From Rhabdophis nuchalis (taxonomy: Eukaryota > Chordata > Lepidosauria > Squamata > Natricidae), in NCBI GenBank assembly GCA_039707465.1, contig CM077646.1, forward strand, positions 81,616,715-81,680,714: DNA of 64,000 nucleotides, in the 5' to 3' direction. The position numbers and the translations under genes were made by a program. The stretch's first letter is position 1; the number at the start of each line of letters is the position of its first letter. Shown here piece by piece: positions 3,391 to 63,019 of the stretch. The notes under the pieces were generated by a model. It was not told the origin of the DNA, searched no databases, and worked only from the letters and a program-made list of their open reading frames with translations.

Positions 3391-3973
3391 TAGGCAAGCC
3401 TTTCTATGCCTTGAGCTATCCGGTATCCCTGATACATCAGCCAATTTACAGGACTCTTAATGAGAGAATATTTTCACAGCTCCTGTTCAAGGTCCCTTTA
3501 AGGGGAGGAGACTAAACGTCATCCCTCTCTGCCCTTCGACTCAACCTAGAGATCATCCAGACAGAGAGCCAATTAGATTACTGCTGTGTGAAATTTTTTT
3601 TAGATATGTGTTAGATTTTTAAGGGCTGAAAATAAAGAGACCAGGATGGATCCATTTCAGGCTTATTAGCCTTCTTCAGCTGGCCATACTCCTTCTACTG
3701 GGATTTGAACCGGCGCTCTCCAGCATGTGAGGCAAGCCTTTCTATGCCTTGAGCTATCCGGTATCCCTGATACATCAGCCAATTTACAGGACTCTTAATG
3801 AGAGAATATTTTCACAGTTCCTGTTCAAGGTCCCTTTAAGGGGAGGAGACTTAACGTCATTCCTCTCTGCCCTTCGACTCAACCTAGAGATCATCCAGAC
3901 AGAGAGCCAATTAGATTACTGTTGTGTGAAATTTTTTAGATATGTGTTAGATTTTTAAGGACTGAAAATAATA
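3391..3973 (-). repeat. Tandem tRNA-headed hammerhead repeat, subfamily 2 (338-bp period, about 1.7 units)
   Basis: A block at about 3393-3633 recurs at 3731-3973, offset by 338 bp with only a handful of differences. Read on the minus strand, each unit runs: tRNA-like A box (TAGCTCAAGGC, + 3731-3762 and 3393-3424), B box (GGTTCAAATCC, + 3701-3711), hammerhead (3685-3639), then a body of about 215 bp. The body is homologous to the units at 4.0-4.4 kb and 31.8-32.7 kb, sharing the blocks around CTGTCTGGATG and CTCCTCCC, but is clearly diverged. The head would allow Pol III transcription and the ribozyme would cut multimeric RNA to unit length. Both functions are inferred from motifs. Confidence 0.8.
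3639..3685 (-). ncRNA. Hammerhead ribozyme motif, subfamily 2 (complete core)
   Basis: Read on the minus strand, in order. Stem I 5' strand is GGCCAG. Core is CUGAAGA, fitting CUGANGA. Stem II is AGGCU paired with AGCCU, loop AAUA. Then comes GAAA. Stem III is AUG paired with CAU, loop GAUC. C17 is the expected cleavage nucleotide, and stem I 3' strand is CUGGUC. All invariant core bases are present and the NUH cleavage rule is met (AUC). Compared with the motifs at 4329 and 31859, stems I, II and III differ by paired changes that keep the helices. It lies 16 nt downstream of the B box. Activity is inferred, not shown. Confidence 0.8.
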
Positions 3974-4445
3974 TATATATATATACGTTTTATGAGCTGA
4001 TCAATAAATAAATCAGAGAGACTAGTATAGATCTATTTCGATCAATAAATAAATCAGGGATCAGCTCATAAAACTTACATATTTAAAAAATCACACAACG
4101 GAACTCATGGCTTTCTGTCTGGATGGTCTCTGGTGGTGAGCCGAAAGGCAGAAAAGGAAACAGTATGTCTCCTCCCTTAATTGGGGCCCTAACAGGGTGT
4201 TGTGGAACAATTATAGATACTTATCTTCCTGTCTCAGCTGATGCAATAAGAGAACCTGGCTGGCTGAATGGCTAAAGGCTCTTGCCTGACATGCAATACA
4301 GCCCCGGTTCGAATCCCAGTAAGGGTATGGCTAGCTGATGAGAGCTAAAAAGCTCGAAATAGATCTATACTTGTCTCCCTGATTTATTTATTGATCAGCT
4401 CATAAAACTTACACACACACACATACACACACACATATATGTATC
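3974..4445 (+). repeat. tRNA-headed hammerhead repeat, subfamily 1, with inverted ends
   Basis: The left part (about 3987-4060) contains an inverted partial copy with a truncated hammerhead half at 4020-4040. It is followed by a plus-strand unit: body 4070-4250, A box TGGCTGAATGG from 4261, B box GGTTCGAATCC at 4306-4316, then a hammerhead at 4329-4375. Both ends carry GAGCTGATCAATAAATAAAT in opposite orientations, next to (AT)n and (AC)n microsatellites. The same layout occurs at 31.8-32.75 kb. The tRNA-like head suggests a Pol III SINE-like origin. I see no open reading frame and no clean TSD. Confidence 0.75.
4329..4375 (+). ncRNA. Hammerhead ribozyme motif, subfamily 1 (complete core)
   Basis: In order: stem I strand GGCUAG, core CUGAUGA, stem II GAGCU with AGCUC closing loop AAAA, then GAAA. 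Stem III is AUA with UAU around loop GAUC, A17 is the cleavage-site base, and the stem I return strand is CUUGUC. Every core base needed for catalysis is present. Stem I has one U-U mismatch at its third pair; the related copy at 32285 reads CUAGUC there. Predicted cleavage is after 4369. It sits 12 nt after the B box of the tRNA-like head. Fold assigned by eye. Confidence 0.8.
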
Positions 4446-31110: not shown

Positions 31111-31824
31111 ATAAAGAGCCAAGATAACAGGCAAATGGATCATTAAATAAATCAACTTCTCATTTGAGGAACAACTGACCAGGATCATGCTATCCTCTTT
31201 TAGACTTGTTATTTAAAGACTTACGGTAACTCTTTGGAGATGATATGAATGCTGGGAAAGATCAAAGGAAAGTGAAGAAATGACCAGCAGGAAGGTTACA
31301 GTTACAGTGACATGGGAGCACTGTTTGAAAACCCAAAATTTAAGGGCAAATCTTCTTGAAGAAAATATATCTATGTGGTTGTTGAGCGTTAACACAAACT
31401 TAATAGCACATAAACATCAATCAATGTTAGCATTAGATGAAAACAAAGCTATTATAACCAATGAATGATTGTCAATGGGTACATAACAAGGAAGAGAAAC
31501 TTAATTTCCGGGATCAGTTGGAAAATAAATAAATAAACACTTTGAAATATTGCCAAAGATTAGGATCTAGATATATTAAACTAGGTTGCTTGATTCTGGT
31601 ATTTAAAACTGCTAAGCATATTTTCTTATTAATATGTGAACATTTGATCCTAAATCTGAAATTGATGGAAGATGTTCTTTTGGAATGCTTCGCTAAACTT
31701 TAAATCTATGTTTTTAGTAATTATTTTAAAGATTTGAGATATTTTATTCTGAGTTTCACTTGCTTTCAAATAGTATTTAAAAAGATATGGACATTAGATT
31801 AATATATATATATATATGTATGGT
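31111..31824. other. No gene seen
   Basis: AT-rich, ending in a short (AT)n run beside the hammerhead repeat array. Confidence 0.4.
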
Positions 31825-31858
31825 ACGTTTTTGAGCTGATCAATAAATAAGTCAGGGA

Positions 31859-31905
31859 GATTAGTATAGATCTATTTCGAGCTTTTTAGCTCTCGTCAGC
31901 TAGCC
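31859..31905 (-). ncRNA. Hammerhead ribozyme motif, subfamily 1 (complete core)
   Basis: Minus strand: stem I GGCUAG; core CUGACGA, with C at the free position 7; stem II GAGCU/AGCUC with loop AAAA; GAAA; stem III AUA/UAU with loop GAUC; A17; return strand CUAAUC. One C-A mismatch in stem I, otherwise complete. It lies immediately downstream of a tRNA-like head whose B-box region is at + 31918-31928. Confidence 0.8.
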
Positions 31906-32284
31906 ATACCCTTACTGAGATTTGAACCGGGGCTGTGTTACATGCTAGACAGGAGCCTTAGCCATTAGGCCACGAGGTTCTCTTCCTGATCTATACTAGT
32001 CTCCCTGACTTATTTATTGATTAGCTCAAAATGTAACACACATAAAAAAAATTACACAACGGAACTCATAGCTTTCTACCTAGATGGTCTCTGGTGATGA
32101 GCCGAAAGACAGAAAAGGAGAGCAGTATGCTTCCTCCCTTAATTGGGGCTTAACAGGGTGTTGTGACACAAGTATATACTTATCCTCCTGTCTCAGCTGA
32201 TCAGGAAGAGAACCTGGTGGCCTAATGGCTAAGGCTCCTGCCTAGCATGTAATACAGCCCTGGTTCAAATCCCAGTAAGGGTAT

Positions 32285-32331
32285 GGCTAGCTGATGAGAG
32301 CTAAAAAGCTCAAAATAGATCTATACTAGTC
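32285..32331 (+). ncRNA. Hammerhead ribozyme motif with G12-to-A change
   Basis: Stem I is fully paired (GGCUAG with CUAGUC, including one G-U). Core CUGAUGA and stem II are intact, but the segment after stem II reads AAAA instead of GAAA. That replaces G12, the presumed general base, so strong loss of self-cleavage is expected. It closes the 330-nt unit. The change also shortens the CpG TCGAAA to TCAAAA, consistent with CpG decay. Confidence 0.75.
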
Positions 32332-32760
32332 TCCCTGACTTATTTATTGATCAGCTCAAAAACGTAACACACATATAAAAAAATTACACAACGGAACTTA
32401 TAGCTTTCTGTCTAGATGGTCTCTGGTGATGAGCTGGCTGAAAGGCAGAAAAGGAGAGCAGTATGCTTCCTCCCTTAATGGGGGCTTAACAGGGTGTTGT
32501 GACACAAATGTATGTATGTATGTATGTATGTATGTATGTATGTATGTATGTTCCACAACACCCTGTTAGGGCCCCAATTAAGGGAGGAGACATACTGTTT
32601 CCTTTTCTGCCTTTTGGCTCATCACCAGAGATCATCTAGACAGAAAGACATGAATTCCGTTGTGTGATTTTTTTAAATATGTGTGTTAGTTTTATGAGCT
32701 GATTTATCTGATTTATTTATTGATCAGCTCATAAAACTAACACACACACACATACATATA

Positions 32761-36839: not shown

Positions 36840-37330
36840 TATTATATTATGGAAGTAAAACACACATGAGAACAAATGTTTAATAAATAGTTCATCTCAG
36901 AACAAGGAGTAAGACAAGGATATGAAATGTTTCCTACGTTATTTAATGTATTTATGGATAGATTTATCAATAATGCTTTGAGGGTGATAAAGCGGGTGTT
37001 TGTATACAGATAATACTATATTGTTGACCGAGACTTCAAATGATCAGCAGTAAATGCTAGTAGATTGTATAATTCAATAAAAAGTATTTCCTGAAAATTC
37101 ATGCATTAATACCCAAGATAATTGTTTTTCACAATGGAAATGGAGTGAATCATTACACAGGTGCAAAACTAAAGCAAGTGTTTTGCTATCTTGGTAGATT
37201 TGTGTTTTTAGGCTTTACTAGATATGGTAAAATAGATGGAGAAATGCTGGTGCATAGCTAGTGCATAGTACTGCATGTGGTCTATATTTAGGAATGCGTT
37301 TTTGTTAAAAGAAGCCAATACAGTTGTATA
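36840..37330 (+). pseudogene. Decayed non-LTR reverse transcriptase fragment
   Basis: One frame gives EQGVRQGYEMFPTLFNVFMD near 36899-36958, the RT motif with RQG and P.LFN. After a frameshift YTDNTILLT appears near 37012, the position of the YADD box with A and the second D altered. YLGRFVF near 37187 resembles the post-RT block. Clade not assigned. Too broken to be functional. Confidence 0.6.
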
Positions 37331-37770
37331 TAAGAGCATGCTCCTACCCAGTTGTATATAAGAGCATGCTCCTACCCATTTTACTATGTGCAGAGATGGA
37401 TACTTTAGGAGGGGAAATCTGGGAATGGTATGGTGGGAAAAGCGTGTTATAAAATACAGTAAGATGAGGTGAGAATTGATGGGTAAAGAATTAATGTGTA
37501 AGAAACAGTTTATTTTAATGTATTAAAATAATTTTATATGTTTATTACCAAATATCAGTTAAAAGCAGAGTATAATCTGATTTATCCACTCATTTTTTTG
37601 ATATTCAAACAATGAGGTGTCTTAAGACAATCAATAATTATGTTGTGAAGTTTCCAAAAGATGCCCTAATTAATTTACAAGCCTCGAGACAAAGTTCAAA
37701 AGAAATCCAGTCATTTATTAGGAGCGATATTTTGGCATTGCCTGCCATGGAGCCAGATCTGATTTCCGTT
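37331..37770. other. No gene seen; 28-bp tandem duplication
   Basis: The phrase beginning GTTGTATATAAGAGCATGCT is present twice in direct tandem at about 37324-37378. The rest is AT-rich. The retroposon tail of the next LINE begins at about 37770. Confidence 0.5.
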
Positions 37771-40700
37771 TATTTATTTTATTTATTTTATTTATTTTAT
37801 TAAATTTATACCCTGCCCTTCTCCTTGTTAGGACCCAGGGCGGCGCACAGGCATTATTAAAACCACAAAATACAAAATCGATTAAAATATATTAAATTAT
37901 TAGACCCGTGCTAAAAACCCATTTTAAAACCATACCAAATTAATTTTAAATTTAAAAGTCAGAAGTAGGGGCTATCCTAGGCCGGCTTGTTGGAATAGAT
38001 ACGTCTTAAGACGTTGGCGGAAGAGGCGGAGGTCCGAGATAGTGCGAAGGTCGGGGGGTAGGTCGTTCCAGAGGGCCGGGCCCGCCACAGAGAAGGCCCT
38101 TCCCCTGGGTGTCGCCAGCCGGCATTGCCCCGCTGACGGCACCCGGAGAAGACCCTCTCTGTGGGAGCGGATCAGACGAAGGGATGTATGGGGCAGGAGA
38201 CGGTCTCGTATATAGCTAGGCCCCGAGCCATGGAGCGATTTAAAGATGGTCGTCAGCACCTTGAAGTGCACTCGAAAGGCCACAGGCAGCCAGTGCAGCT
38301 CGCGCAGGAGAGGTGTTACGTGGGTTTGCCTTGAGGCACCCATAATCACCCGCGCGGCCGCATTCTGTACTAACTGTAGCTTTCGAGTGCACCTCAAGGG
38401 GAGCCCCATGTAGAGAGCGTTACAGTAATCCAGCCGGGATGTCACAAGCGCTTGAGTGACTGTGCGAAGGGCTCCCCGGTCCAGTAAGGGGCGCAACTGG
38501 CGTATCAGGCGTACCTGATAGAACGCCCCCCTGGCCACGGCCGTCACATGGTCCTCCATGGACAGCCGCGAATCCAGGAGGACGCCCAAGTTGCGCGCCC
38601 TCTCCACGGGGGCCAGTTGTTCGCCCCCAATGGCCAGTGTTGGACTTATCTGGCTGAACTGGGGTGCCGGAAACCACAGCCACTCGGTCTTGGACGGGTT
38701 GAGCTTGAGTTTGTTCCTACCCATCCAGATCCATACGGCCTCCAGACACCGGGACAGCACCTCGACGGCATCGTTGGGGTGGTTTGGGGTGGATATGTAC
38801 AACTGAGTGTCATCAGCGTACAGATGGTATTCCACCCCAAAACCACGGATGATCTCGCCCAGCGGCTTCATGTAGGTGTTAAACAGGAGTGGCGAGAGGA
38901 CCGACCCCTGAGGGACCCCACATGTGAGTGGCCTCGGGGACGACCTCTGCCCTCCTGCCAACACCCATTGCGACCGACCAGAGAGGTAAGACGAGAACCA
39001 CCGTAGAACGGTGCCTCTCAGCCCCAACCCCCCCAATCGGTGCAATAAGATACCATGGTCGATGGTATCAAAAGCCGCTGAGAGGTCTAATAGGACAAGG
39101 ATAGAGGAACAACCTCTATCCCGTGCCCTCCAGAGATCATCTACCAACGCGACCAATGCCGTTTCGGTGCTGTGACCGGGCCGGAGGTCGGACTGGCGCG
39201 GGTCTAGATAATCAACTTCCTCCAGATGTCGGGGAAACTGTTGAGCCACCACACTCTCAACAACCTTCACTAAAAAGTGAAGGTTGGAGACGGGACGATA
39301 GTTCTCTAATAAAGCTGGATCCAGGGATGGTTTCTTGAGGAGGGGCCTCACCACCGCCTCTTTCAAAACGGTGGGCAAGTACCCCTCACTCAGAGATGAA
39401 TTCACAATGCCCTGGAGCCAGCCTCGCGTCACCTCCCAGGATGCCAGTACAAGCCAGGAGGGACACGGGTCCAATAAACATGTGGTGGCTCTAAGGTTCC
39501 TCCGCAACCTGTCCATATCCTCGGTAGTAACAAAGTCAAACTCCTCCCAAGGTGTAATCTCAAGACCTGCGCTGGACGCCTCGACTGGACCACAAGTGGA
39601 GGGCAACTCGTTCCGAATCTGAGTGATTTTGTCCTGCAGGAATACTCCAAATTCCTCTGCTCGACCCTGCAGAGGGGCTTCCCGCGGCCTCAGATGAAGG
39701 AGGGAGCGGGTCACCCCAAACAGGGCGGCAGAGCGGTTTTCCGCGGATGCGATAAGAGTGGCACAATACTCACGTTTGGCCACTCTTAGCGCCACTAAGT
39801 AAGTCCTAATATGGTCTCTCACTAGTGTTCGGTCAGATTCGGATCGAGAAGATCTCCACCTACTCTCTAGGCGTCTCTTGCGGCGTTTCATCTCCCGAAG
39901 CTCCTCGGTGAACCAAGGAGCCTGGGTGACTCGGCGCCGCATGAGAGGCCGCAAGGGCGCGACTCGGTCCAAGGCCCCCGTGGCCGCACTATACCATGCG
40001 GCCACTAGATCCTCAGTCGAGCCACGGGGCAGGGACACAGGTATTGGCCCAAGCTCCCTCTGGAACCTTTCCGGGTCGATCAGGCGCCTGGGGCGGAACC
40101 AACTCGGTGTCTCTGGTTCCGCCTCCCCGCGGTGGGGTGTGACGGTTGGAAAGTCTATCCGAAGGAGAGAGTGATCTGTCCATGACAAGGGCAAGATGAC
40201 TAAATCCCCTGTTCCGAGATCACTAATCCAGTGTCCAGAGACAAAAATCAGATCCAGCGTGTGTCCTCCTTCGTGAGTGGGGCCCTGAACTACTTGGGTC
40301 AGGTCCATGGCCGTCATGGAAGCCATGAACTCCCGAGCCACCTCGGATGTTTCGCCCGCCGACGGCAGGTTGAAGTCCCCCATGACTACAAGTCTGGGGG
40401 TCTCAACCGCCATTGCGGCGATCACCTCGAGTAGCTCGGGCAGGGCTGCTGTTACATAGCGGGGAGCCAGGTATACAACTAGCAAGCCCAACTGCCTCCC
40501 TAGGCCCCATTTCACGAAGAGGGACTCACAGCCGGTCGTCTGAGGCACAGTGGTCTCCTTCGGCTCCAGACTTTCCTTAACAATAACCGCCACCCCCCCA
40601 CCCCTGCCGAGGGCCCTGGGCTGATGAAATGCACGGTAGCCTGGTGGGCACATTTCCACGAGGGGTAAACCCCCCTCGGGGCCCAACCAGGTCTCCGTAA

Positions 40701-40870
40701 TTCCCACTAGGTCCGGGTCCCCCTCTGACACAAGGTCATTTATGAGGGGGGATTTATTCACCACGGACCTGGCGTTGCAGAACATCAGCCTGGGACCCCG
40801 GCTCTGTAGTCCCTGACCGCCTAGCCCACGAGCGGAGTACAGGGGGTTGGGGCAAGCGACCACTCGTAAC
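37771..40870 (-). mobile_element. L2-like LINE with intact ORF2 frame
   Basis: A minus-strand element running from about 40870 (5') to 37771 (3'). It lacks the 5' region of about 450 bp seen in the copy at 50.4 kb, so it is probably 5'-truncated just upstream of the endonuclease. The 3' UTR (37971-37771) contains the AGGACCCAGGGCGG block, then TATAAATTTAAT and an (AAATA)n tail. I could not identify a target-site duplication. It is GC-rich against its AT-rich flanks, as expected for a fairly recent insertion. Confidence 0.85.
37972..40863 (-). CDS. L2-like LINE ORF2: endonuclease and reverse transcriptase, 963 codons, no internal stop
   Basis: Endonuclease and RT polyprotein of a non-LTR retrotransposon, which nicks target DNA and reverse-transcribes its own RNA on the free end. 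Residues count from the first codon of the open frame, a GTG; the first ATG is residue 27, at the edge of the endonuclease. Apurinic-type endonuclease: CNARSVVNK (29-37), ITETWL (55-60), GDFNLPS (162-168), TDHSLL (229-234). [16 protein letters not shown] (506-519), NYRPVSNL (521-528), [13 protein letters not shown] (591-603), GVPQGSVLSPLLF (649-661), YADD (682-685). The C-terminal LWNDLPP motif and leucine-rich end are typical of the L2 clade. Catalytic residues all look intact, so the protein could be functional, but the absent 5' UTR makes expression doubtful. The clade is inferred from motifs. Confidence 0.88.
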   Translation of the reverse strand: MVACPNPLYSARGLGGQGLQSRGPRLMFCNARSVVNKSPLINDLVSEGDPDLVGITETWLGPEGGLPLVEMCPPGYRAFHQPRALGRGGGVAVIVKESLEPKETTVPQTTGCESLFVKWGLGRQLGLLVVYLAPRYVTAALPELLEVIAAMAVETPRLVVMGDFNLPSAGETSEVAREFMASMTAMDLTQVVQGPTHEGGHTLDLIFVSGHWISDLGTGDLVILPLSWTDHSLLRIDFPTVTPHRGEAEPETPSWFRPRRLIDPERFQRELGPIPVSLPRGSTEDLVAAWYSAATGALDRVAPLRPLMRRRVTQAPWFTEELREMKRRKRRLESRWRSSRSESDRTLVRDHIRTYLVALRVAKREYCATLIASAENRSAALFGVTRSLLHLRPREAPLQGRAEEFGVFLQDKITQIRNELPSTCGPVEASSAGLEITPWEEFDFVTTEDMDRLRRNLRATTCLLDPCPSWLVLASWEVTRGWLQGIVNSSLSEGYLPTVLKEAVVRPLLKKPSLDPALLENYRPVSNLHFLVKVVESVVAQQFPRHLEEVDYLDPRQSDLRPGHSTETALVALVDDLWRARDRGCSSILVLLDLSAAFDTIDHGILLHRLGGLGLRGTVLRWFSSYLSGRSQWVLAGGQRSSPRPLTCGVPQGSVLSPLLFNTYMKPLGEIIRGFGVEYHLYADDTQLYISTPNHPNDAVEVLSRCLEAVWIWMGRNKLKLNPSKTEWLWFPAPQFSQISPTLAIGGEQLAPVERARNLGVLLDSRLSMEDHVTAVARGAFYQVRLIRQLRPLLDRGALRTVTQALVTSRLDYCNALYMGLPLRCTRKLQLVQNAAARVIMGASRQTHVTPLLRELHWLPVAFRVHFKVLTTIFKSLHGSGPSYIRDRLLPHTSLRLIRSHREGLLRVPSAGQCRLATPRGRAFSVAGPALWNDLPPDLRTISDLRLFRQRLKTYLFQQAGLG

Positions 40871-41163
40871 CAGCGGTGGCTGAACTTTACCCCTGTGTTT
40901 CCCCTCCCCTCCCCTTAGTCTGTGTCATAAATCACCTCCACCAACGAAGTGCTGCAGCAGGTTATTTTGAAATTATTGTAAAATTTCATGCCTCACATGC
41001 CTGCTGTAGAAATCTGAGATCCAATGTTATCATTCCAATGTCAACGATAATAGGCATGGAAATGATTTACAAGTCGACATATATATTAATTGGACAAATG
41101 AGTTTTAAAAATTCAATACTATATCTCATTGCATCCCTGTTCATTAGACTTTTTCCTTTACAG
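40871..41163. other. No gene seen
   Basis: Short stretch between the LINE and a hAT MITE; a 96-codon plus frame (40876-41166) has no domain. Confidence 0.4.
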
Positions 41164-41720: not shown

Positions 41721-41855
41721 CAGGGATGTCCAAACTTGGGAACTTTAAGACTTGTGGATTTCAATTCCCAGAATTCCCCAGTCAGCTATGCTGGCTGGGG
41801 AATTCTGGGAGTTGAAGTCCACAAGTCTTAAAGTTCCCAAGTTTGGACATCCCGG
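41721..41855. mobile_element. Fold-back hAT MITE: near-perfect 66-bp arms, perfect 8-bp TSD
   Basis: The whole 135-bp element is a palindrome: 66-bp arms around a 3-bp centre, with four mismatches by my count. It starts CAGGGATGTCC and ends GGACATCCCGG. AACTATAA occurs on both sides (41713-41720 and 41856-41863), a perfect 8-bp duplication. RNA or single-stranded DNA would form one long hairpin. Relatives are at 47903-47995 and fragments at 13258 and 59930. Confidence 0.9.
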
Positions 41856-43224: not shown

Positions 43225-43320
43225 TATACACATACATACATACATACATACATACATACATACATACATACAGACAGACAGACAGACAGACAGACAGATA
43301 GACAGACAGACAGAGTTTAG
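43225..43320. repeat. Compound (ATAC)n(AGAC)n microsatellite
   Basis: About a dozen ACAT/ATAC units change into a similar number of AGAC units, with a few AGAT. Frames across it (HTYIHTYIHT and cysteine-valine-rich antisense) are artefacts. Confidence 0.95.
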
Positions 43321-43329
43321 ATATAGATA

Positions 43330-43455
43330 TAGAAGTTTTTGTAGATTTTCATGGGTATAGGTATGCTGGTCTTGTTGTCTTTTCCCGTGAACGATTGAGA
43401 TCTTGGCAACGTTTTGGCGGTGTCTCATTCACCATCTTCAGGCTGGCGTTTACGG
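43330..43455 (-). repeat. Dispersed repeat resembling a Penelope-like element end (tentative)
   Basis: The reverse complement contains GCCTGAAGATGGTGAATGAG and CACCGCCAAAACGTTGCC. The general form (CTGAAGA, short hairpin, AAACG) resembles ends of vertebrate Penelope-like elements as I remember them. No RT or GIY-YIG frame is nearby. Identity is uncertain. Confidence 0.35.
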
Positions 43456-50452: not shown

Positions 50453-52933
50453 GTTTGGCCCTCTGAATTATCGAGGGCCCGTCTTGAGGAAGGATTTATT
50501 AATCCGGAGAGACGGGTGAAGCACGGCCTCAGGGGATTTTTAGTTAGGAAATTTTTATCTATTTTAGGGGGCACCAGGGAGGGGGGTGGGTATAGACAGA
50601 TTGAGACAAAACAACTATATGAAAGAAAGGGCCGGACCAGTAGCCGACGGGAGGGGACGGAAGGTACCGATTTGAGGGGGGAACTACTAGTCGTGCCATT
50701 GGAGGGCATGCCAATCCAGACGGTTGTGGGGAGGGGCAGGGCCGAGGGGAGACCATCCTCCCGGTTGTTGGCACGCAGCCGTTGTTTACGAACGGTCAGA
50801 TGCCACAACCCCCGCAGGCTAGGTGGTCAGGGAATACAGAGCCTGGGCCTGCGGCTGATGTTCTGCAATGCCAGGTCCGTTGTCAACAAAGCCCCCCTCG
50901 TCCATGACCTTGTGTCAGAGGGGGAGCCGGACCTGGTAGGAATTGCGGAAACCTGGTTGGGCCACGAGGGAGGACTTCCCCTCGTTGAAATGTGCCCACC
51001 AGGCTACCGCGCTTTTCATCAGCCCCGGGCCCAAGGTAGGGGTGGAGGGGTGGCGGTCATTATCAAGGAAGGTCTTGAGCCAAGAGAGACCATTGTGCCA
51101 TAGACTACCGGTTGTGAGTCCCTCTGCGTGAAGTGGGGCCTGGGGAGGCAGTTGGGCTTGCTGGTTATATACCTGGCTCCTCGCTATGTAGCAGCAGCCC
51201 TGCCCGAGCTCCTGGAGGTGATCGCTACGGTGGCAGTGGAGACCCCCAGACTTATAGTCATGGGGGACTTTAATCTGCCATCGTTGGGCGAATCATCCGA
51301 GGTAGCTCGGGAGTTCATGGCTTCCATGACAGCCATGGACCTGACCCAACTAATTCAAGGCCCCACCCACGAGGGTGGTCACACACCGGACCTCATCTTT
51401 GTCTCAGGCCAATGGAAGAGTGATCTGGGCTTAGGGGATATAGTCATCACACCCTTGTCATGGTCAGATCACTCACTTCTCCGGCTCGACTTTCCAACCG
51501 CTACCCCCCGCCGCGAGGAGGCGGCACCAGAACCACCTATCTGGTTCCGCCCCAGGCGCCTGATGGACCCAGATGGGTTCCAGATGGCGCTTGGGCCACT
51601 TCCTGTACCCCTGACCCGCGCCCCGATGGAGGATCTCGTGGCCGCATGGAATACTGCGACCACGGGAGCCTTGGATCGGGTCGCGCCCTTGCGGCCTCTC
51701 TTGCGGCGCCGAACCGCCCCGGCCCCTTGGTTTACCGAGGAGCTGAGGGCGATGAAACGCCACAAGAGATGCCTAGAGAGAAGATGGAGGGCTACTCGAT
51801 CTGGATCTGACCGGACACAGGTAAGAGCCCATTTACGGACTTACATTGTGGCGTTGAGAGTGGCCAAACGCCATCATTGTGCCACTCTCATAGCATCCGC
51901 AGAAAACCGCCCTGCCGCCCTGTTTGGGGTGACCCGTTCCCTCCTTCAGCAGAGGGTGCGGGAAGCCCCGTTACAGGGTAGAGCAGAGGAATTTGTGACT
52001 TTTCTGCAGGACAAAATCGCTCAGATACAGAACGAGTTAGCCCCCATTCATGGCCCAGTGGGATGCCACGAGGCAGATCTTGTTTGGGAGGAGTTTGACT
52101 CCGTTGCTTCCGAGGATATGGACAGGTTACGTGGGCGACTGCGAGCCACCACATGTTTATTGGACCCGTGTCCCTCCTGGCTTGTACTGGCATCCTGGGA
52201 GGTGACACGAGGCTGGCTCCAAGAGGTTATCAACGCATCCTTGAGTGAGGGTTCCTTGCCTGCTTCCCTAAAAGAGGCTATGGTGAGGCCCCTCCTTAAG
52301 AAGCCCTCTTTGGACCCAGCTCTTTTAACAAACTATCGTCCTGTCTCCAACCTTCCCTTTTTGGCGAAGGTTGTCGAGAGTGTGGTGGCACAACAGTTTC
52401 CCCGTCACCTGGAGGAAGTTGATTATCTAGACCCGCGCCAGTCCGGCTTTCGGCCCGGGCATAGCACTGAGACGGCATTGGTCACGTTGGTTGATGATCT
52501 CTGGAGGGCCAGAGATGGGGGTTGTTCCTCCATCCTGGTCCTATTAGATCTCTAGGCGGCTTTCGATACCATCGACCATGGTATCCTATTGCATCGGCTG
52601 GGGAGGTTGGGGGTGGGAGGCACCGTCCTACGGTGGTTCTCCTCCTACCTCTCTGGCCGATCGCAATTTGTGTTGGCAGGGGAGCAGAGGTCGACCCCGA
52701 GACCCCTCACATGTGGGGTGCCTCAGCTGTCGGTCCTTTCGCCTCTCCTGTTTAATGCATACATGAAGCCGCTGGGTGAGATCATCCGTGGTTTTGGGGT
52801 AGAGTATCATCTCTACGCTGATGATACTCAGCTGTATATATCTACCCCAAACCACCCCAACGATGCCGTAGCGGTGATGTGCCAGTGCCTGGAAGCCGTG
52901 CGGATCTGGATGGGAAGTAACGGACTTAGGCTC

Positions 52934-52938
52934 AACCC
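52934..52938 (+). other. Target-site duplication of gypsy element (left)
   Basis: AACCC here is repeated exactly at 57897-57901, directly outside the other LTR. Removing one copy restores the LINE codons (N P, then T K T E). Confidence 0.95.
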
Positions 52939-53194
52939 TGTTGCATCCTGACGGCACTCAAAAGCCCCAGTAACAGCCAGCCGTTTAATTGGCTTGGGTG
53001 TGGCTGGTTGTGGCCGAGGGCGGCTGATCTGTTGATTGGCCGGCTGCCTAGCAGCTCTCCATAAAAGGAGCTGTAGGGCAGAAGGCCCCCACCTTTTTAA
53101 CTAGTCACTTTTATAAGCAACCGTTGCTGTTTGGAATAAAGAGCTTTTAACCTTACCGGTCTGGACTCACTCTCTCTCAGCAGAGAATCTAACA
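52939..53194 (+). repeat. 5' LTR of gypsy element
   Basis: Starts TGTTGCATCC and ends TCTAACA, giving TG...CA. Contains a TATA-like CATAAAAGG at 53060-53068 and a poly(A) signal AATAAA at 53135-53140, so U3, R and U5 functions fit in 256 bp. Differs from the 3' LTR by A versus G in the CCCC(A/G)GTAAC word and T versus G in GGCTGG(T/G)TG. Confidence 0.95.
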
Positions 53195-53212: not shown

Positions 53213-53332
53213 GGCCGGTACTGATTACACGGAACGGAGCTCTTCTCGCTGCGGACTGAAGAGTCTCTCTGTCTGACTATCCTCCGGCCTCGCTATTTCT
53301 CCAGCGAGCTTACTGGCCTGTTGCCGCGCACA

Positions 53333-56300
53333 ATGGCCACTTTGCCGCCTTTCGCCCCCTATGACGCGTCGCAAGAATCGTGGGAAGCCTTTCTCGCTCG
53401 ATTCGAGTGCTTCCTCCTCGCGGGCGACCACGGAGAACTCACCCCGGAGCGTCGACTGGGGCTCTTCCTGGGCTGTGGAGGCCGCACAGTTTTCGCCGTA
53501 GCGCGGAATATTGCCGCGCCCGCACCGGTCCATACCTTGGCATGGGACACGCTGCAGGCCCGTTTGAAGGCCCACTTCGCCCCCGCACCCTCGCGGATTT
53601 CTCGACGGTTTGCGTTCCGGCAATGCCGCCAGCTGCCCACACAGTCAGCGGCGGATTTCCTGCAGGCCCTGAGAACCGCGGCCATCTTGTGCGAATTCGC
53701 CGCCCCGTACCTCGACGAATCGTTGGTCGAACAATTCGTCTGCGGGCTAAAGGACGTGAAGCTCAGGCGTCGGCTGATGGCCCGCTCGGACATCACCTTG
53801 GAGCAGGCTGTGGAAGAGGTCAGGGGCGCCGAGTTGGCCGAGGCCGCCTCTTTTGATTTAGGCCCCAGCCAGCCGGCAATGCCGTTGCCCGCCCCGCGGG
53901 CCTGCCGGGTCGACGACTACGCCCCCCTCGACCCGTCGGAGGACTTCGAGGCCTATGACCAGGTGGCGCGCATCCAAGCTACGGGCCGGAGCCGCGCCAG
54001 AGCCCAACCATCTCGCCGGCCACCCATGACTTGCATCGGGTGCGGTGGCGGCCATGTGAGGAACGACTGCCCCTTCCGGGCTACTATTTGCCGACGATGC
54101 GACCGCAAGGGCCACATCGCCCGCGTCTGCAGAGCCAACCTTCCAGCCCTGGCCCCCCCGCCGGCTCGTGACACGACAATATCTGCGCCTTCCCGGAACT
54201 ACGGTCAACGCCGCTCGTCTCGCAGGCCGCAGCCTGAGGCCGACTGTTTCGCCGCGAAGGAGCTCCAGGACTCCATTCCGCTTCCGACGGATGACCGTAG
54301 GCGCATTTCCACGTCCCTTTTTATAAATGGCAGGTCTATTACCATGGAGGTTGACTCGGGCTCGTCTCGGTCCCTTGTTTCCTGGCCACAGTTGGCCCGC
54401 CTTTGCCCTGCCATTAGGCTTGCTGATTTGACACAGCCCGAGACTCTGTTGAGGAACTATCAGGGCAACCCCATCGACGTGCTAGGCCAACTCCGTGCCC
54501 ACGTCCGCTATGGTCGTTTCACCGGGTTCCTGCCCATTCTGGTCGTCAAGCGCCCTCTGACCGCCCTTATAGGTTTAGACTGGTTCGCTGCCCTGGGTCT
54601 CTCGGTCCAGCGTGTGCACCGGGTGCCAACTGCCTCGCCGGTGGATGCGGTCCTGGCGGACTTCCCCGACGTTTTCGACGGCACTTTGGGCACTTATAGG
54701 GGTTCCCCGGTTTCCCTTAACCTAGACCCTCAGGTTGCTCCAATTCGGCTCAAGGCCCGCAGGCTGCCTTTCGCACTGAAGCCGAGGGTTGACGCGGAAC
54801 TTGATCGTCTAGTGGCGCAGGGCGTACTGGAGCCGGTCGACCAGGCGAAGTGGGAGACCCCCATCGTAGTTCCCATCAAGCCCGATGGTTCCATACGCAT
54901 CTGCGCCGATTACAAGTCGACGATCAACCGCGGGCTTCAGGCGAACCCATATCCGGTTCCGGTGGTGCAACACCTGTTACACTCCTTGGGACAGGGTTGC
55001 ATTTTCGCAAAACTGGATATGGCGCAGGCCTACCAGCAGCTTCCGGTGGATGATGAGGCGGCTGAAGCGCAGACTATTGTCACCCACCGAGGAGCTTTCT
55101 GTTGTCGCCGCCTCCAATTTGGCGTTTCCGTTGCCCCGGGGATTTTCCAGAGCCTCATGGAGCGGCTGCTCCATGGGCTTCCGGGGGTTGTCCCGTATTT
55201 TGATGACATCTTGATAGCCGCCGCTAGCGCATTAGATCTCGCCAAAGTACTTCGGAAGGTCCTTACCATCTTCAGGGGCGTGGGTTTTAAATTGAAACTT
55301 AGTAAGTGTAAGTTCGCTGAGCCGAGGGTAGAATTTCTGGGGTTTATGGTGGATGCCCAGGGCATTCACCCCACTCCCTCCAAGGTCGAGGCGATCCACG
55401 ACGCCCCCACCCCTGCTTCCAAACAGGAGCTGCAGGCATTCCTTGGCCTGCTCAATTTTTACGCGCCCTTTATTCCGCATAAGGCGTCACTAGCCGAGCC
55501 GCTTCACCGATTGCTCGATCGCTCGGCGGTCTGGCGCTGGGGCAGCCGAGAGGCGCAGGCGTTTGCGGCTATTAAAAACATGCTAACGTCTAAGGCCGTG
55601 CTGGTTCAATATTCGGACCGCCTACCCTTGGTGTTGGCATCCGATGCCTCCCCCTTTGGAGTGGGGGCCGTCCTGAGCCACGTTCATCTCGATGGCTCGG
55701 AGGCCCCCATTGCCTTTTATTCCCGGACTCTGTCTCCTACGGAGCGCAACTACAGTCAGATTGACAAGGAGGCCCTGGCTGTAGTGTCCGGGATTAAAAA
55801 ATTCCACGAATACCTGTACGGCCGCCACTTCTCTGTTTTCACCGACCACAAGCCGCTCCTTGGGCTTCTGGCCGGTGATCGGCCTACCCCTTCCATTCTC
55901 TCTCCCAGGATGACCAGGTGGACGGAGTTTCTGACGGCGTACGATTACTCGCTGTTCTACCGTCCGGGGAAACAGCTGGGACATGCTGATGCCCTCAGTC
56001 GTTGCCCCCTTCCCCGGACGGACCAGGCGCCGGTGCCAGCCCTGTCCGTCCTGTCAGTGGCAGATTCGGATCTCCCCCTTACCTCGTCCGACGTCGCGGT
56101 GCAAACCAAGGCAGACCCTGTCCTGTCCCAAGTTTCCACCTGGGTCCTGCGAGGGTGGCCCCTGGGCTCGCTGCCGGACGTGTATCGGCCTTTCAAGTCC
56201 CGCCAACTGGAGCTATCGCTCCACAGCGGGTGCTTATTATGGGGAGACCGGGTCATCGTTCCCCCGCCCCTCCGCCATCAGGTACTTAGCTCCCTCCATG

Positions 56301-57607
56301 CCACCCACCCGGGCATAGCTCGCATGAAGGCATTGGCCAGGAGCTATGTCTGGTGGCCGCGCATGGACGACGAGGTGGCCGCCTGGGTGGGTGCTTGCCA
56401 GGCGTGCCAGATCTCTCTCCCCGCACCCCCCTCCGCTCCCCATCGGGAGTGGGACGCCCCCAGGTCACCGTGGTCCAGGGTCCACATTGACTTTGCCGGC
56501 CCCTTCCATGGTCAGACCTTCATGGTGGTAGTAGATGCCTACTCTCGCTGGACCGAGGTCATCCTGATGGCCTCGACCACGGCTGAGAGCACCGTGCGCG
56601 CGCTTCGGCGCCTTTTTGCTACGCACGGGTTGCCGGACTCCCTGGTCTCCGACAACGGGCCCCAATTTCACTCTGCCATTTTCCAGGAATTCCTGGCCTC
56701 CCAGGGGATCCGGCACGCGCCAACGGCCCCCTACCACCCTGCCGCAAATGGCCGGGCGGAAAGAGCCGTCCGCTCGGCCAAGGAGGCCCTCGGGAGGATG
56801 GATAGGGGGGATTGGCAGTCAAGGGTAGATGCTTACCTTATGGGACAGCACTCTATGCCTTGCCAGGCGACAGGGAAGAGCCCCGCAGAGCTGCTGATGG
56901 GCCGCCGCCTGCGGACCAAATTGGACAGGCTGCACCCCCAGTATAATGAGGTGCAGCCGTGCAAACTGGGGGTCCCCTCTCCCCGCCGTTTCTCCGTCGG
57001 CGACACAGTTTTTGCCAGGAACTTCGCTGGGGATCCGCGGTGGGTACCCGCTGTCGTCCGCGAACTAACGGGTCCCTGTTCCTACAGGGTTGGACGACCG
57101 GATGGATCTGAGTGGCGGCGACACTTGGATCAATTGAGGCGCCGCCCTCCGTTTTCAGCCCCGCCGACGCCATCACGGCCTCCAGACCTGTCGACCGTCG
57201 AGGCCTCAACCCAGCGGGATGACTGGCCCATCACCGCACCATCCTGGCCATCTACCACCTTCTCCGACCACTCCACCCCTGAACAGTTTCCGGGTCTGCT
57301 TATGCCGGAACTGTCGCCCCTGGAACATCCACAACCCGACACACAGAACACCCCAAGTGCGCAACGACGACGGTCCGATCCATGTCCGGACCCGGCCGAA
57401 TTGGACCCAACACCCAAGGGACTGGAGCACGATGCCAACCCACAGAACGCGCCCCCGGACGTTGCCCCGCCGTCTACCGTGGCACGCGGTGACATCACAG
57501 ACCACGACGACACAGTTTGTCCTCCTCCATCGGCCCCGGCAGAGACATTGAGGCGCTCGGGGCGGAGTAGATGCAGCCCCACCTACCTCAGCGAGTACGT
57601 GTGCTAG
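53333..57607 (+). CDS. Gypsy gag-pol polyprotein, 1424 codons, one uninterrupted frame
   Basis: Retrotransposon polyprotein for particle assembly, reverse transcription and integration. The ATG at 53333 is the first in frame; a TTG 12 bases upstream is not needed. Capsid-like gag covers residues 1-225. Two zinc knuckles follow: CIGC...H...C at 234 and CRRC...H...C at 253. Protease has the DSG triad at 341. RT has LDMAQAY (D562) and YFDD (622-625). RNase H has SDAS (D771) and FTDHK (838). The integrase zinc domain starts at H992 and includes WW and CQAC. Integrase catalytic residues are D1053, D1107 and E1143, with 35 residues between the last two. A C-terminal GPY/F-like module (TGPCSYRV) lies near 1250, then a proline-rich tail. 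Gag and pol are fused without a frameshift. All catalytic positions look intact. Confidence 0.93.
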   Translation: MATLPPFAPYDASQESWEAFLARFECFLLAGDHGELTPERRLGLFLGCGGRTVFAVARNIAAPAPVHTLAWDTLQARLKAHFAPAPSRISRRFAFRQCRQLPTQSAADFLQALRTAAILCEFAAPYLDESLVEQFVCGLKDVKLRRRLMARSDITLEQAVEEVRGAELAEAASFDLGPSQPAMPLPAPRACRVDDYAPLDPSEDFEAYDQVARIQATGRSRARAQPSRRPPMTCIGCGGGHVRNDCPFRATICRRCDRKGHIARVCRANLPALAPPPARDTTISAPSRNYGQRRSSRRPQPEADCFAAKELQDSIPLPTDDRRRISTSLFINGRSITMEVDSGSSRSLVSWPQLARLCPAIRLADLTQPETLLRNYQGNPIDVLGQLRAHVRYGRFTGFLPILVVKRPLTALIGLDWFAALGLSVQRVHRVPTASPVDAVLADFPDVFDGTLGTYRGSPVSLNLDPQVAPIRLKARRLPFALKPRVDAELDRLVAQGVLEPVDQAKWETPIVVPIKPDGSIRICADYKSTINRGLQANPYPVPVVQHLLHSLGQGCIFAKLDMAQAYQQLPVDDEAAEAQTIVTHRGAFCCRRLQFGVSVAPGIFQSLMERLLHGLPGVVPYFDDILIAAASALDLAKVLRKVLTIFRGVGFKLKLSKCKFAEPRVEFLGFMVDAQGIHPTPSKVEAIHDAPTPASKQELQAFLGLLNFYAPFIPHKASLAEPLHRLLDRSAVWRWGSREAQAFAAIKNMLTSKAVLVQYSDRLPLVLASDASPFGVGAVLSHVHLDGSEAPIAFYSRTLSPTERNYSQIDKEALAVVSGIKKFHEYLYGRHFSVFTDHKPLLGLLAGDRPTPSILSPRMTRWTEFLTAYDYSLFYRPGKQLGHADALSRCPLPRTDQAPVPALSVLSVADSDLPLTSSDVAVQTKADPVLSQVSTWVLRGWPLGSLPDVYRPFKSRQLELSLHSGCLLWGDRVIVPPPLRHQVLSSLHATHPGIARMKALARSYVWWPRMDDEVAAWVGACQACQISLPAPPSAPHREWDAPRSPWSRVHIDFAGPFHGQTFMVVVDAYSRWTEVILMASTTAESTVRALRRLFATHGLPDSLVSDNGPQFHSAIFQEFLASQGIRHAPTAPYHPAANGRAERAVRSAKEALGRMDRGDWQSRVDAYLMGQHSMPCQATGKSPAELLMGRRLRTKLDRLHPQYNEVQPCKLGVPSPRRFSVGDTVFARNFAGDPRWVPAVVRELTGPCSYRVGRPDGSEWRRHLDQLRRRPPFSAPPTPSRPPDLSTVEASTQRDDWPITAPSWPSTTFSDHSTPEQFPGLLMPELSPLEHPQPDTQNTPSAQRRRSDPCPDPAELDPTPKGLEHDANPQNAPPDVAPPSTVARGDITDHDDTVCPPPSAPAETLRRSGRSRCSPTYLSEYVC

Positions 57608-57640: not shown

Positions 57641-57896
57641 TGTTGCATCCTGACGGCACTCAAAAGCCCCGGTAACAGCCAGCCGTTTAATTGGCTTGGG
57701 TGTGGCTGGGTGTGGCCGAGGGCGGCTGATCTGTTGATTGGCCGGCTGCCTAGCAGCTCTCCATAAAAGGAGCTGTAGGGCAGAAGGCCCCCACCTTTTT
57801 AACTAGTCACTTTTATAAGCAACCGTTGCTGTTTGGAATAAAGAGCTTTTAACCTTACCGGTCTGGACTCACTCTCTCTCAGCAGAGAATCTAACA
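57641..57896 (+). repeat. 3' LTR of gypsy element
   Basis: 256 bp, 254 identical to the 5' LTR. It keeps the TATA-like and AATAAA signals. Directly followed by AACCC (57897-57901), the second half of the target duplication. Confidence 0.95.
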
Positions 57897-58910
57897 AACC
57901 CGACCAAGACCGAGTGGCTGTGGTTTCCGGCTGCCCGATTCAACCACCTTTCTCCAACGCTGGCTATAGGGGGCGAACATCTTGCCCCTGTGGATGGGGC
58001 GCGCAATTTGGGTGTCCTCCTGGATACCCGGCTGTCTATGGAAGAGCAAGTGACAGCCGTGGCCAGGAGGGCGTTTTACCAGGTTCGCCTGGTTCGCCAA
58101 TTGCGCCCCCTATTGGATCGGGACGCCCTTCGCACAGTCACTCATGCCCTCGTGACATCTCGACTGGACTATTGTAACTCTCTCTACATGGGGCTCCCCT
58201 TGAGGTGCACCCGGAGGCTTCAGTTAGTTCAGAATGCAGCCGCGCGAGCAATTATGGGAACCACCAGGTTCACCCACGTTACACCGCTCTTGCGCGAGCT
58301 GCACTGGCTACCTGTCGTCTTCCGGGTGCGCTTCAAGGTATTAATCATCATCTTTAAAGCGCTCCATGGCTCGGGACCTAGCTACCTGCGGGATCGGATC
58401 CTGCCTCATACATCCTCACGGCCGATTCGCTCCCACAGAGAGGGACTGCTCCGGGTGCCGTCCACTAGACTCTGTCAGCGGGTGACACCCAGGGGAAGGG
58501 CTCTCTCTGTGGCGGGCCCGGCCCTCTGGAACGACCTTCCCCCCCGATATTAGAACGACCACGGACCTCCGCTCCTTCCGCCTGAAATTGAAGACTCATC
58601 TTTTCTGCCTGGCCGGCCTAGGGTAGTCTCTCTGTCTATGGGTTTTAAATGTATACTATATTTATTTGGTATTTTTAGTTAATGGGATTTTAGCACAGGA
58701 TTGATTGAGTTTAATTCGTTTTAATCTGTATGTATTTTGTATATTTTTCGTTTTTTAATTTCCCTGTGCACCGCCCCGAGTCCCTGTGGGGAGAGGGTGC
58801 GGTCAATAAATTCAACTTATTATTATAAACAAAAGCTCTTTTGGGGTCCTTTATATTTTTTAAAATAATTGGCCAGGAAACAAAAAGTTTAAGAAACACC
58901 ATGCTATAGC

Positions 58911-62811: not shown

Positions 62812-62967
62812 TAACACCCTGTTAGGGCCCCAATTAAGGGAGGAAGCATACTGCTTTTCCTTTTCTGCCTTTTGGCTCATCACCAGAAACCATCTAGACA
62901 GAAAGTCATGAAGTCCATTGTGTAATTTTTTTATATGTGTGTTACGTTTATTGATCAGCTCAAAAAC

Positions 62968-62970
<3 letters not shown>
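62812..62970 (-). repeat. Hammerhead-repeat body fragment (no ribozyme)
   Basis: CCCTGTTAGGGCCCCAATTA, GGGAGGAAGCATACTG and TTTTGGCTCATCACCAGAAA match the body of the 4.1 and 32.1 kb units in reverse. It ends at GATCAGCTCAAAAACGTAAC beside a (CA)n run, the same junction as the other copies. The tRNA-like head and hammerhead are absent. Confidence 0.75.

Positions 62971-63019
<49 letters not shown>
62971..63019. repeat. (CA)n microsatellite
   Basis: About 24 CA units, directly abutting the end of the hammerhead-repeat fragment. Confidence 0.95.

What the first reader, a model, noticed from the sequence alone, without database searches (positions are those of the whole stretch)
3639..3685. Hammerhead ribozymes in tRNA-headed tandem repeats, with covariation between subfamilies
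Four 47-nt motifs (3639-3685 minus, 4329-4375 plus, 31859-31905 minus, 32285-32331 plus) share the hammerhead layout of three stems around CUGANGA and GAAA. Between subfamilies the helices change in compensating ways: stem I GGCUAG/CUAGUC versus GGCCAG/CUGGUC, stem II GAGCU/AGCUC versus AGGCU/AGCCU, stem III AUA/UAU versus AUG/CAU. Unpaired core bases are kept, which is the signature of selection on RNA structure. Hammerheads are known in Penelope-like elements, the Schistosoma Sm-alpha repeat, newt satellite 2 and retrozymes. The combination here, Pol III head plus hammerhead plus 330-338 bp tandem units in a squamate, may be undescribed.
Basis: partly seen in the sequence, partly recalled or inferred. 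Interest (0 to 1): 0.9.

Follow-up and report, generated by a model that had tools for sequence, protein, structure and literature searches.

The report
Ribozyme-bearing tRNA-headed jumping gene family
An animal genome, probably a reptile's, carries many thousands of copies of a small tRNA-headed mobile element with a hammerhead self-cutting RNA motif, and its copies look as if a Penelope-like retroelement inserted them, which makes the question of what moves such elements testable.

Summary
The motifs are hammerhead ribozymes by structure. Three of the four given places pass a strict descriptor (2 of 1,500 shuffled windows have any hit); the fourth has a mutated core. In the host genome (1.92 Gb) the A-type stem II plus core occurs 11,058 times and the B-type 3,433 times, while the two strand-swapped combinations occur 0 and 16 times. 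Pair variants shared between copies nearly always keep pairing; private ones mostly break it.

The 330-340-nt unit has a tRNA-like head and a hammerhead. In 46 of 110 insert clusters both ends are outward 3' ends, mostly at two fixed unit positions beside CA/TA microsatellites, the halves meeting head-to-head. The genome is rich in Penelope-like elements (PLEs) with their own hammerhead and the same layout; SINE units lie in 7 of 10 PLE loci examined.

Best reading: a retrozyme-like SINE mobilised in trans by a PLE, reverse transcription starting inside the RNA on both target strands. tRNA plus hammerhead is already known in schistosome Sm-alpha. Probably new: the reptile-like host and the PLE link. 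Cleavage, circles and Pol III use are inferred; the host was not identified.

The parts
3639..3685 (-). B-type hammerhead, intact core and all 14 inner pairs; predicted cleavage between 3645 and 3644
   Evidence: descriptor; pairs
4329..4375 (+). A-type hammerhead, core intact, one stem I mismatch; predicted cleavage after 4369
   Evidence: Rfam HH9 25.7 bits (gathering 52)
31859..31905 (-). A-type hammerhead, core intact, one stem I mismatch
   Evidence: HH9 23.7 bits
32285..32331 (+). A-type hammerhead with G12 to A core change, all 14 pairs kept
   Evidence: HH9 26.1 bits
4261..4316 (+). tRNA-like promoter boxes of A copy 1: A box 4261-4271, B box 4306-4316
   Evidence: Rfam tRNA 18.8 bits at 4254-4327 (gathering 29)
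32218..32272 (+). tRNA-like A box 32218 and B box from 32262 of A copy 2
   Evidence: Rfam tRNA 17.0 bits at 32211-32283
31918..31972 (-). tRNA-like A box 31972 and B box from 31928 of A copy 3
3392..3971 (-). B-type insert of about 1.7 units; unit spacing 336-338
3984..4041 (-). left, outward-facing 3' part of the A-type insert of locus 1 (unit 323-267), next to (AT)n
4059..4419 (+). right half of the A-type insert of locus 1; ends at unit position about 330 next to (CA)n
31814..31991 (-). left half of locus 2 insert (unit 333-156), outward end next to (AT)n
31988..32513 (+). right half of locus 2 insert (unit 275-333, 1-333, 1-134); ends at the T2 site next to (ATGT)n
31996..32325 (+). one monomer from predicted cleavage site to cleavage site, 330 nt, GC 42.4%, no TTTT on the sense strand
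32539..32746 (.). second insert of locus 2: minus body (T2 end at 32539) head-to-head with a plus tail (T1 end at 32746)
62813..62977 (.). locus 3: minus body (outer end at unit 119) head-to-head with a plus tail ending at T1 next to (AC)n 62971-63019
   Evidence: TRF

Best explanation
It is a high-copy, non-autonomous retroelement (a SINE of the retrozyme kind): a unit of about 333 nt with a tRNA-derived head, immediately followed by a type I hammerhead, then an AC-rich tail and a body. Proposed cycle: (a) RNA is made from the tRNA-type internal promoter or by read-through (inferred); (b) hammerheads in multi-unit transcripts, probably paired as dimers through the palindromic stem III, cut out unit-length RNA that a tRNA ligase may close into circles (inferred); (c) the reverse transcriptase/endonuclease of the resident Penelope-like element takes this RNA in trans, cuts both strands of a CA/TA-rich microsatellite, and primes reverse transcription inside the RNA at two preferred sites, T1 (unit about 330) and T2 (unit about 138); (d) where both primings succeed, the two cDNAs, from two templates, meet head-to-head. 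Shown by sequence: the hammerhead was kept by selection among source copies; insert ends, orientation and microsatellite flanks; co-location and one close junction with PLE sequence. Inferred: transcription, cleavage, circles, and PLE as the enzyme.
For: Hammerhead; genome counts 11,058 / 3,433 against swapped 0 / 16; 99 copies left after dropping the 63 used for ascertainment: shared pair variants 10 of 11 standard (5 double), private variants 35 of 43 broken; 64 of 99 core intact, 42 of 99 core plus all pairs. Inserts: 110 clusters, 220 ends: 151 outward 3' ends, of which 78 at T1 and 42 at T2 (windows of 14 and 23 of 333 positions); microsatellite-like flanks 54 of 78 and 35 of 42, against 509 of 9,089 control 20-mers; head-to-head 63 against tail-to-tail 22; 29 of 217 same-orientation runs exceed 345 nt, up to 817 nt. 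Two-template origin: of 46 double-ended clusters 21 have T1 on one side and T2 on the other, 3 mix A and B arms, and the 7 T1/T1 clusters have arms no more alike (0.738-0.955) than arms of different loci (mean 0.897). PLE: 150 matches scored of 2,353 candidates; a 2,790-bp unit open throughout with RVT_1 3.1e-17 and a weak GIY-YIG; its own hammerhead; ends at 112 (L073, L075, L076, L079) or 134-144 (L070, L072, L074, L079) mostly next to microsatellites, as in Anolis PAc, whose RT starts 111-118 into the ORF with a 30-40-bp tail and which cleaves and extends both strands (PMC11167929, main section read); neighbouring PLE pairs within 6 kb -/+ 10, +/- 1, same strand 7. SINE in 7 of 10 PLE loci; PLE pieces in 19 of 63 SINE loci; SINE-PLE junction in L070.
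Against: No significant sequence similarity between SINE and PLE outside the hammerhead (shuffles at least as good: 191, 466, 107 and 319 of 500), whereas a SINE usually shares the end of its partner. None of 115 inner ends lies at 280-289, where the cleavage site (282/283) is, so hammerhead-cut linear RNA is not the usual template; circles or uncut multimers are needed. In PAc the hammerhead is not required for insertion in vitro. Only 46 of 110 clusters are double-ended in the predicted way; 59 have one and 5 have two 5' ends, 31 of 151 outward 3' ends are at neither site, and 22 junctions are tail-to-tail. Some PLE alignments end elsewhere (88 in L071 and L074, 2403 in L078). Co-location could arise because both elements prefer microsatellites; background density was not measured on random loci. 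Rfam gathering: 0 hits in the window and in 16 loci. A-box and B-box patterns are found only in 18 and 23 of 29 full-length units.
Confidence: 0.72

Rival explanations
1. A metazoan-type retrozyme whose RNA is reverse-transcribed by a LINE (CR1, L2 or Bov-B) rather than by the PLE; the microsatellites are by-products.
For: CR1-like open frames are frequent in the window (family name recalled). LINE-driven microsatellite seeding is described in snakes (PMC6050309, passages).
Against: In 46 of 110 clusters both ends are 3' ends, the layout is head-to-head and two internal start sites recur, which matches the PLE and not a one-strand, one-end LINE pattern; PLE co-location and a junction. The squamate SINE Squam3 ends in its LINE's 3' end (PMC7983390, passages). 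LINE ends were not compared with the unit here.
Confidence: 0.12
2. The hammerhead is a passenger: the element was founded with a ribozyme, but propagation uses uncut RNA and the ribozyme has no present role.
For: 0 of 115 inner ends at the cleavage site; the PAc hammerhead is not needed in vitro.
Against: Shared variants keep pairing, 5 of them by double changes, while private ones mostly break it, and swapped stem II halves are nearly absent genome-wide: source copies were selected for the fold after the subfamilies split.
Confidence: 0.2
3. Head-to-head inserts form by snapback of a single cDNA (self-priming), not by priming on both target strands.
For: Inner junctions often have both arms ending at nearly the same unit position.
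Against: 21 of 46 double-ended clusters have different outer ends (T1/T2), 3 of 46 mix subfamilies, and arm identity is not raised in the 7 testable T1/T1 clusters.
Confidence: 0.08
4. Chance or purely sequence-level repeat homology: the motif looks like a hammerhead but was never one.
For: Rfam gathering cut-offs not reached.
Against: Shuffles, covariation, genome counts.
Confidence: 0.02

Closest known systems
Metazoan non-LTR retrozymes (PMC7229834, passages)
   Same: type I hammerhead, about 300-bp units, dimers to multimers, GC below 45%, PLEs in the same genomes, dimeric action proposed for vertebrate hammerheads
   Different: passages seen mention no tRNA-derived head, inverted double-ended inserts or microsatellite sites; the words reptil, lizard, snake and anolis occur 0 times in that text
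Schistosoma Sm-alpha / Sj-alpha SINE-like elements (PMC2770079, passages)
   Same: hammerhead in a SINE-like element of very high copy number; Sm-alpha has a tRNA-Gln-like head
   Different: fluke; sequence not compared here; no PLE partner stated in the passages seen
Poseidon PLE of Anolis carolinensis, PAc (PMC11167929, main section read)
   Same: hammerhead, tandem copies, internal RT start in an AC-rich site, both strands cut and extended, AT-rich targets
   Different: codes for RT and GIY-YIG endonuclease; the SINE unit is only about 333 nt. The SINE was compared with this genome's own PLE, not with PAc: no significant similarity outside the hammerhead
Hammerhead_HH9 (RF02275); that HH9 is the conserved intronic hammerhead of RECK is recalled
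   Same: best Rfam model for 11 of 12 hammerhead matches at E up to 0.05 in 5 loci; same two-part stem I layout and an A-rich loop II
   Different: 23.7-35.5 bits against a gathering score of 52; intronic amniote hammerheads are described as single motifs in genes (PMC6155905, passages), this is a dispersed repeat
Xenopus repeat-associated hammerheads (PMC3088659, passages)
   Same: dispersed vertebrate repeats with hammerheads, said there to resemble the conserved RECK and C10 hammerheads
   Different: amphibian; sequences not held here and not compared

Membership tests
Type I hammerhead ribozyme | conserved core CUGANGA, GAA, U-H and three helices with stem I open | tested here: met
   3 of 4 window copies; 64 of 99 genome copies core-intact
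Type I hammerhead ribozyme | helices supported by covariation | tested here: met
   swapped stem II halves 0 and 16 against 3,433 and 11,058
Type I hammerhead ribozyme | reaches Rfam gathering score | tested here: not met
   0 hits in the window and in 16 loci
Type I hammerhead ribozyme | self-cleavage | not testable with these tools
   needs in vitro transcription
Metazoan non-LTR retrozyme | type I hammerhead in 150-450-bp tandem units of low GC | tested here: met
   29 full-length units, mean GC 0.417 (A, n=23) and 0.423 (B, n=6); 68 tandem wraps; arrays are short
Metazoan non-LTR retrozyme | expression as small linear and circular RNA | not testable with these tools
   no RNA data
tRNA-derived SINE | internal Pol III promoter boxes in a tRNA-like head | tested here: met
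   3 of 4 window copies have both boxes; B box 23 of 29 and A box 18 of 29 full units; Rfam tRNA only sub-threshold, ARAGORN none
tRNA-derived SINE | 3' end shared with the partner element | tested here: not met
   no significant similarity to the PLE start region outside the hammerhead; LINEs not compared
Penelope-like element | RT and GIY-YIG coding frame | tested here: not met
   the unit is about 333 nt; the coding PLE is separate
Sm-alpha family | sequence homology to Sm-alpha | not tested
   no Sm-alpha sequence was fetched
Hammerhead HH9 | HH9 model score at or above gathering | tested here: not met
   at most 35.5 bits against 52 in the stretches scanned; the genome-wide RF02275 search did not complete
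Hammerhead HH9 | location in the conserved intron | not tested
   no gene context examined

The most novel reading that the evidence does not exclude
This is a SINE whose partner is a Penelope-like element instead of a LINE: a tRNA-headed retrozyme of a reptile-like genome with at least 14,491 hammerheads of exact core and stem II, inserted by the PLE enzyme through two internal start sites on both strands of microsatellites, and possibly of the lineage from which the amniote intronic hammerhead HH9 was domesticated.
Probability: 0.6. Interest if true: 0.86.

Novelty: new variant of a known kind. Interest (0 to 1): 0.75.

Why it matters
What mobilises hammerhead-bearing retrozymes in animals is open; PLEs were proposed as strong candidates (PMC7229834, passage). 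Here a SINE and a PLE share end types, target type, inverted layout and a close junction in one genome, so the proposal can be tested with defined RNA and protein. It also adds a probable reptile with a very abundant hammerhead repeat that Rfam's curated thresholds miss in the stretches scanned, and a candidate relative of the conserved intronic hammerheads. The two start sites and the inverted inserts are a genomic record of what was reported in vitro for PAc, extension of both target strands.

Tried and rejected
Rejected: chance; satellite array (inserts are short and dispersed in the loci examined); snapback origin of inverted inserts; hammerhead-cut linear RNA as usual template (0 of 115 inner ends at 280-289); SINE as a recognisable deletion derivative of the PLE start region (no significant similarity). 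A tRNA identity was not settled: against seven recalled human tRNAs A copies 2 and 3 score best with Arg, A copy 1 with Gly, B with Ala. Led nowhere: one pattern scan each of viral and prokaryotic contigs (0); GIY-YIG Pfam model against the genome (1 match). Circular folding of one unit is only mildly more stable than 100 shuffles (z -1.8). ARAGORN found no tRNA in the window.

Limits: the 63 genome loci cover the exact A-type places listed up to 26.24 Mb of contig C1, so they lean to A and to that region. One exact match per locus was dropped before the counts, not before those. In some searches clusters under 80 bp or within 40 bases of a locus end were left out. L012 and L014 look like two inverted copies of one duplicated stretch and were both counted. 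L003 and L006 overlap: both were, identical rows counted once; L006 was left out. One search's list of PLE places is the 150 scored of 2,353 candidates. One notebook line says 13 of 14 hammerhead matches are HH9; the right count is 11 of 12.

Full report
OBSERVATION. A strict type I descriptor finds three of them and nothing else in the window; with a looser form, which gives the same three, 2 of 1,500 shuffled windows contain any hit. The fourth (32285-32331) has G12 changed to A; the copies at 4329 and 31859 each have one stem I mismatch; the B copy at 3639 is intact. From A to B, 8 of 11 differences are in stems and make 4 double-compensated pairs; the other 3 are at N7, loop II and H17. 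With an outer stem I helix (AGGG/CCCU against GGAG/CUUU) there are 18 pairs: 5 with double changes, 2 with wobble-preserving single changes, 97.2% of cells paired. 0 of 500 shuffles reach the covariation score; the plain count of pair types is reached by 500 of 500.

GENOME SCALE. The window lies in a 1,917,733,297-base genome. The A-type core plus stem II occurs 5,449 + 5,609 times, the B-type 1,747 + 1,686 times. The two half-swapped versions, in which one pair is lost and one becomes a wobble, occur 0 and 16 times. The reversed-pattern control is 0 in all four. On 62 distinct copies from 24 partly overlapping sources, 96.4% of cells pair, 8 of 18 pairs show double changes (0 of 500 shuffles as high; pair types 129 of 500), and slid controls reach at most 44.9% (that alignment was fitted to the model). 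A fit-free count on 99 copies, after dropping one ascertained copy from each of 63 loci, separates two classes. Pair variants shared by at least 4 distinct rows are standard in 10 of 11 cases (5 double). Rarer ones are broken in 35 of 43. That is what one expects if source copies were selected for the fold and individual inserts decay freely. 64 of 99 have an intact core, 55 of 99 all 14 pairs and 42 of 99 both. The commonest H17 is C (75 of 99), not the A of the window's A copies.

RFAM. No curated-threshold hit in the window or in 16 loci. With relaxed thresholds (E up to 0.05) 11 of 12 hammerhead matches in five loci are to HH9, 23.7-35.5 bits against a gathering score of 52, and 1 of 12 to Hammerhead_1. 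The window B copy is hit by no hammerhead model at E up to 10. Kinship with HH9 is therefore a lead, not a result.

DIMER MODEL. Stem III with its loop is a perfect 10-nt palindrome in both subfamilies (AUAGAUCUAU, AUGGAUCCAU), and a palindrome in 113 of 139 core-matching stretches of the window and 63 loci (ascertained copies included). A palindromic 4-nt loop has a chance of 1 in 16, so this alone is modest. Without tertiary contacts the predicted monomer does not form the full hammerhead, while two molecules form it with an extended stem III, gaining 8.6-15.4 kcal/mol. The PLE's own hammerhead does not fold so in that prediction (gain 3.4). A dimeric mode is described for newt and axolotl hammerheads (PMC6155905 and PMC7229834, passages).

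UNIT ANATOMY. In a 333-nt reference unit the A box starts at 175, the B box at 219, the hammerhead spans 242-288 and cleavage is after 282. Of 29 full-length units, 23 have a B box and 18 an A box. TTTT, a Pol III stop, is on the sense strand of 4 of 29, while AAAA is in 29 of 29. This suits read-through by Pol III but is weak evidence because copies are related.

INSERT ANATOMY. In 66 stretches (63 loci and three window loci) 110 clusters were scored, those under 80 bp or near a locus end being left out. Of 220 ends, 151 are 3' ends facing outward: 78 at T1 (unit 320 to the end), 42 at T2 (125-147), 31 elsewhere; 69 are 5' ends. By cluster, 46 have two outward 3' ends, 59 one, 5 none. Flanks are microsatellite-like in 54 of 78 T1 ends, 35 of 42 T2 ends, 8 of 31 others and 18 of 69 5' ends, against 509 of 9,089 control 20-mers. 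Head-to-head junctions number 63, tail-to-tail 22, tandem wraps 68. Of 115 inner ends on A units, 42 fall in 210-239 (tRNA T arm to just before the hammerhead) and 0 in 280-289, where the cleavage site is. Runs longer than 345 nt, over one unit, number 29 of 217, up to 817 nt. So the template is more easily a circle or an uncut multimer than a cut monomer. Of 46 double-ended clusters 21 are T1/T2, 7 T1/T1, 2 T2/T2 and 16 have an end elsewhere; 3 mix A and B arms; and the 7 T1/T1 clusters do not have unusually alike arms. This speaks for two primings on two templates.

PARTNER. A recalled composite PLE RT query found 2,353 candidates, of which 150 were scored, all at E 1.0e-55 or better. One PLE unit of 2,790 bp is open throughout in one frame, with RVT_1 at 3.1e-17 and GIY-YIG at E 0.0068, below its cut-off. 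It starts at its own hammerhead. Among the ten loci fetched, PLE sequence ends near 112 (L073, L075, L076, L079) or 134-144 (L070, L072, L074, L079), mostly beside AT, CA or ATAC repeats; other ends are at 88 (L071, L074) and 2403 (L078). For the Anolis element PAc the paper reports RT starts 111-118 into the ORF, a 30-40-bp tail between two start sites, AT-rich cleavage, and cleavage and extension of both strands (PMC11167929). Neighbouring PLE matches within 6 kb among the 150 are -/+ in 10, +/- in 1, same strand in 7. SINE units are in 7 of 10 PLE loci, PLE pieces in 19 of 63 SINE loci (two of these, L012 and L014, look like duplicates of one another), and in L070 a SINE unit ending at position 246 is followed after 30 bases by a 5'-truncated PLE. 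The window itself has a PLE end fragment at 43335-43444 close to a microsatellite. Against: no significant SINE-PLE similarity outside the hammerhead, and shared taste for microsatellites could explain part of the co-location; I did not measure a background.

KNOWN OR NEW. Hammerheads in a tRNA-headed SINE are known from a schistosome (PMC2770079, passages), in 170-400-nt animal retrozymes (PMC7229834, passages) and in an Anolis PLE (PMC11167929). Searches of the open library for hammerhead ribozyme with SINE and squamate (0), with SINE and tRNA-derived (4, none reptilian by title), hammerhead with lizard and retrotransposon (1, PAc), hammerhead ribozymes with Anolis (0; the plural form, which misses even the PAc paper), hammerhead with SINE and reptile (11, none relevant by title) and two wider ones seen only as capped listings (20 of 97; 15 of 1,812) showed no tRNA-headed hammerhead SINE in a reptile. 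Passages of four further papers (PMC7983390, PMC6050309, PMC10886601, PMC8303610) mention none either. Subscription papers and Repbase were not searched, so it may be in print elsewhere.

HOST. No call names it. CR1-like and Gypsy-like frames (names recalled) and the PLE fit a lepidosaur; this was not tested further. 'Reptile' in this report is a guess.

Noticed in passing
window 43335-43444 (-): fragment of the PLE start region (unit 133-13, 69% identity) ending about 20 bases from a tetranucleotide microsatellite at 43230-43314, the end type seen in intact PLEs
   Followed up: partly
window 41747-41829: 83-nt near-perfect inverted repeat that matches microRNA-precursor models on both strands below their gathering scores; looks like a small palindromic transposon
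   Followed up: no
window 37972-40914 (-): open frame of 980 aa that reads like a CR1-type LINE (family recalled, not searched)
   Followed up: no
window 53225-57607 (+), flanked by 52556-52951 and 57819-58553: 1,460-aa open frame that reads like a Ty3/Gypsy polyprotein lying between two pieces of a CR1-like frame, as if inserted into it (names recalled)
   Followed up: no
window 37321-37378: 28-bp unit repeated 2.1 times without a mismatch
   Followed up: no
L003 2087-2680: three successive similar head-to-head hammerhead pairs (the last cut by N) separated by CA/TA repeats, as if whole inserts had been amplified with their microsatellite
   Followed up: no
SINE unit 210-239, 63 loci and window: excess of inner junctions (42 of 115) at the tRNA-like T arm; could mark an RT stop or a processed 5' end
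   Followed up: partly
L012 and L014: the same SINE arrangement in opposite orientation 1.2 Mb apart on C1, probably an inverted duplication
   Followed up: no
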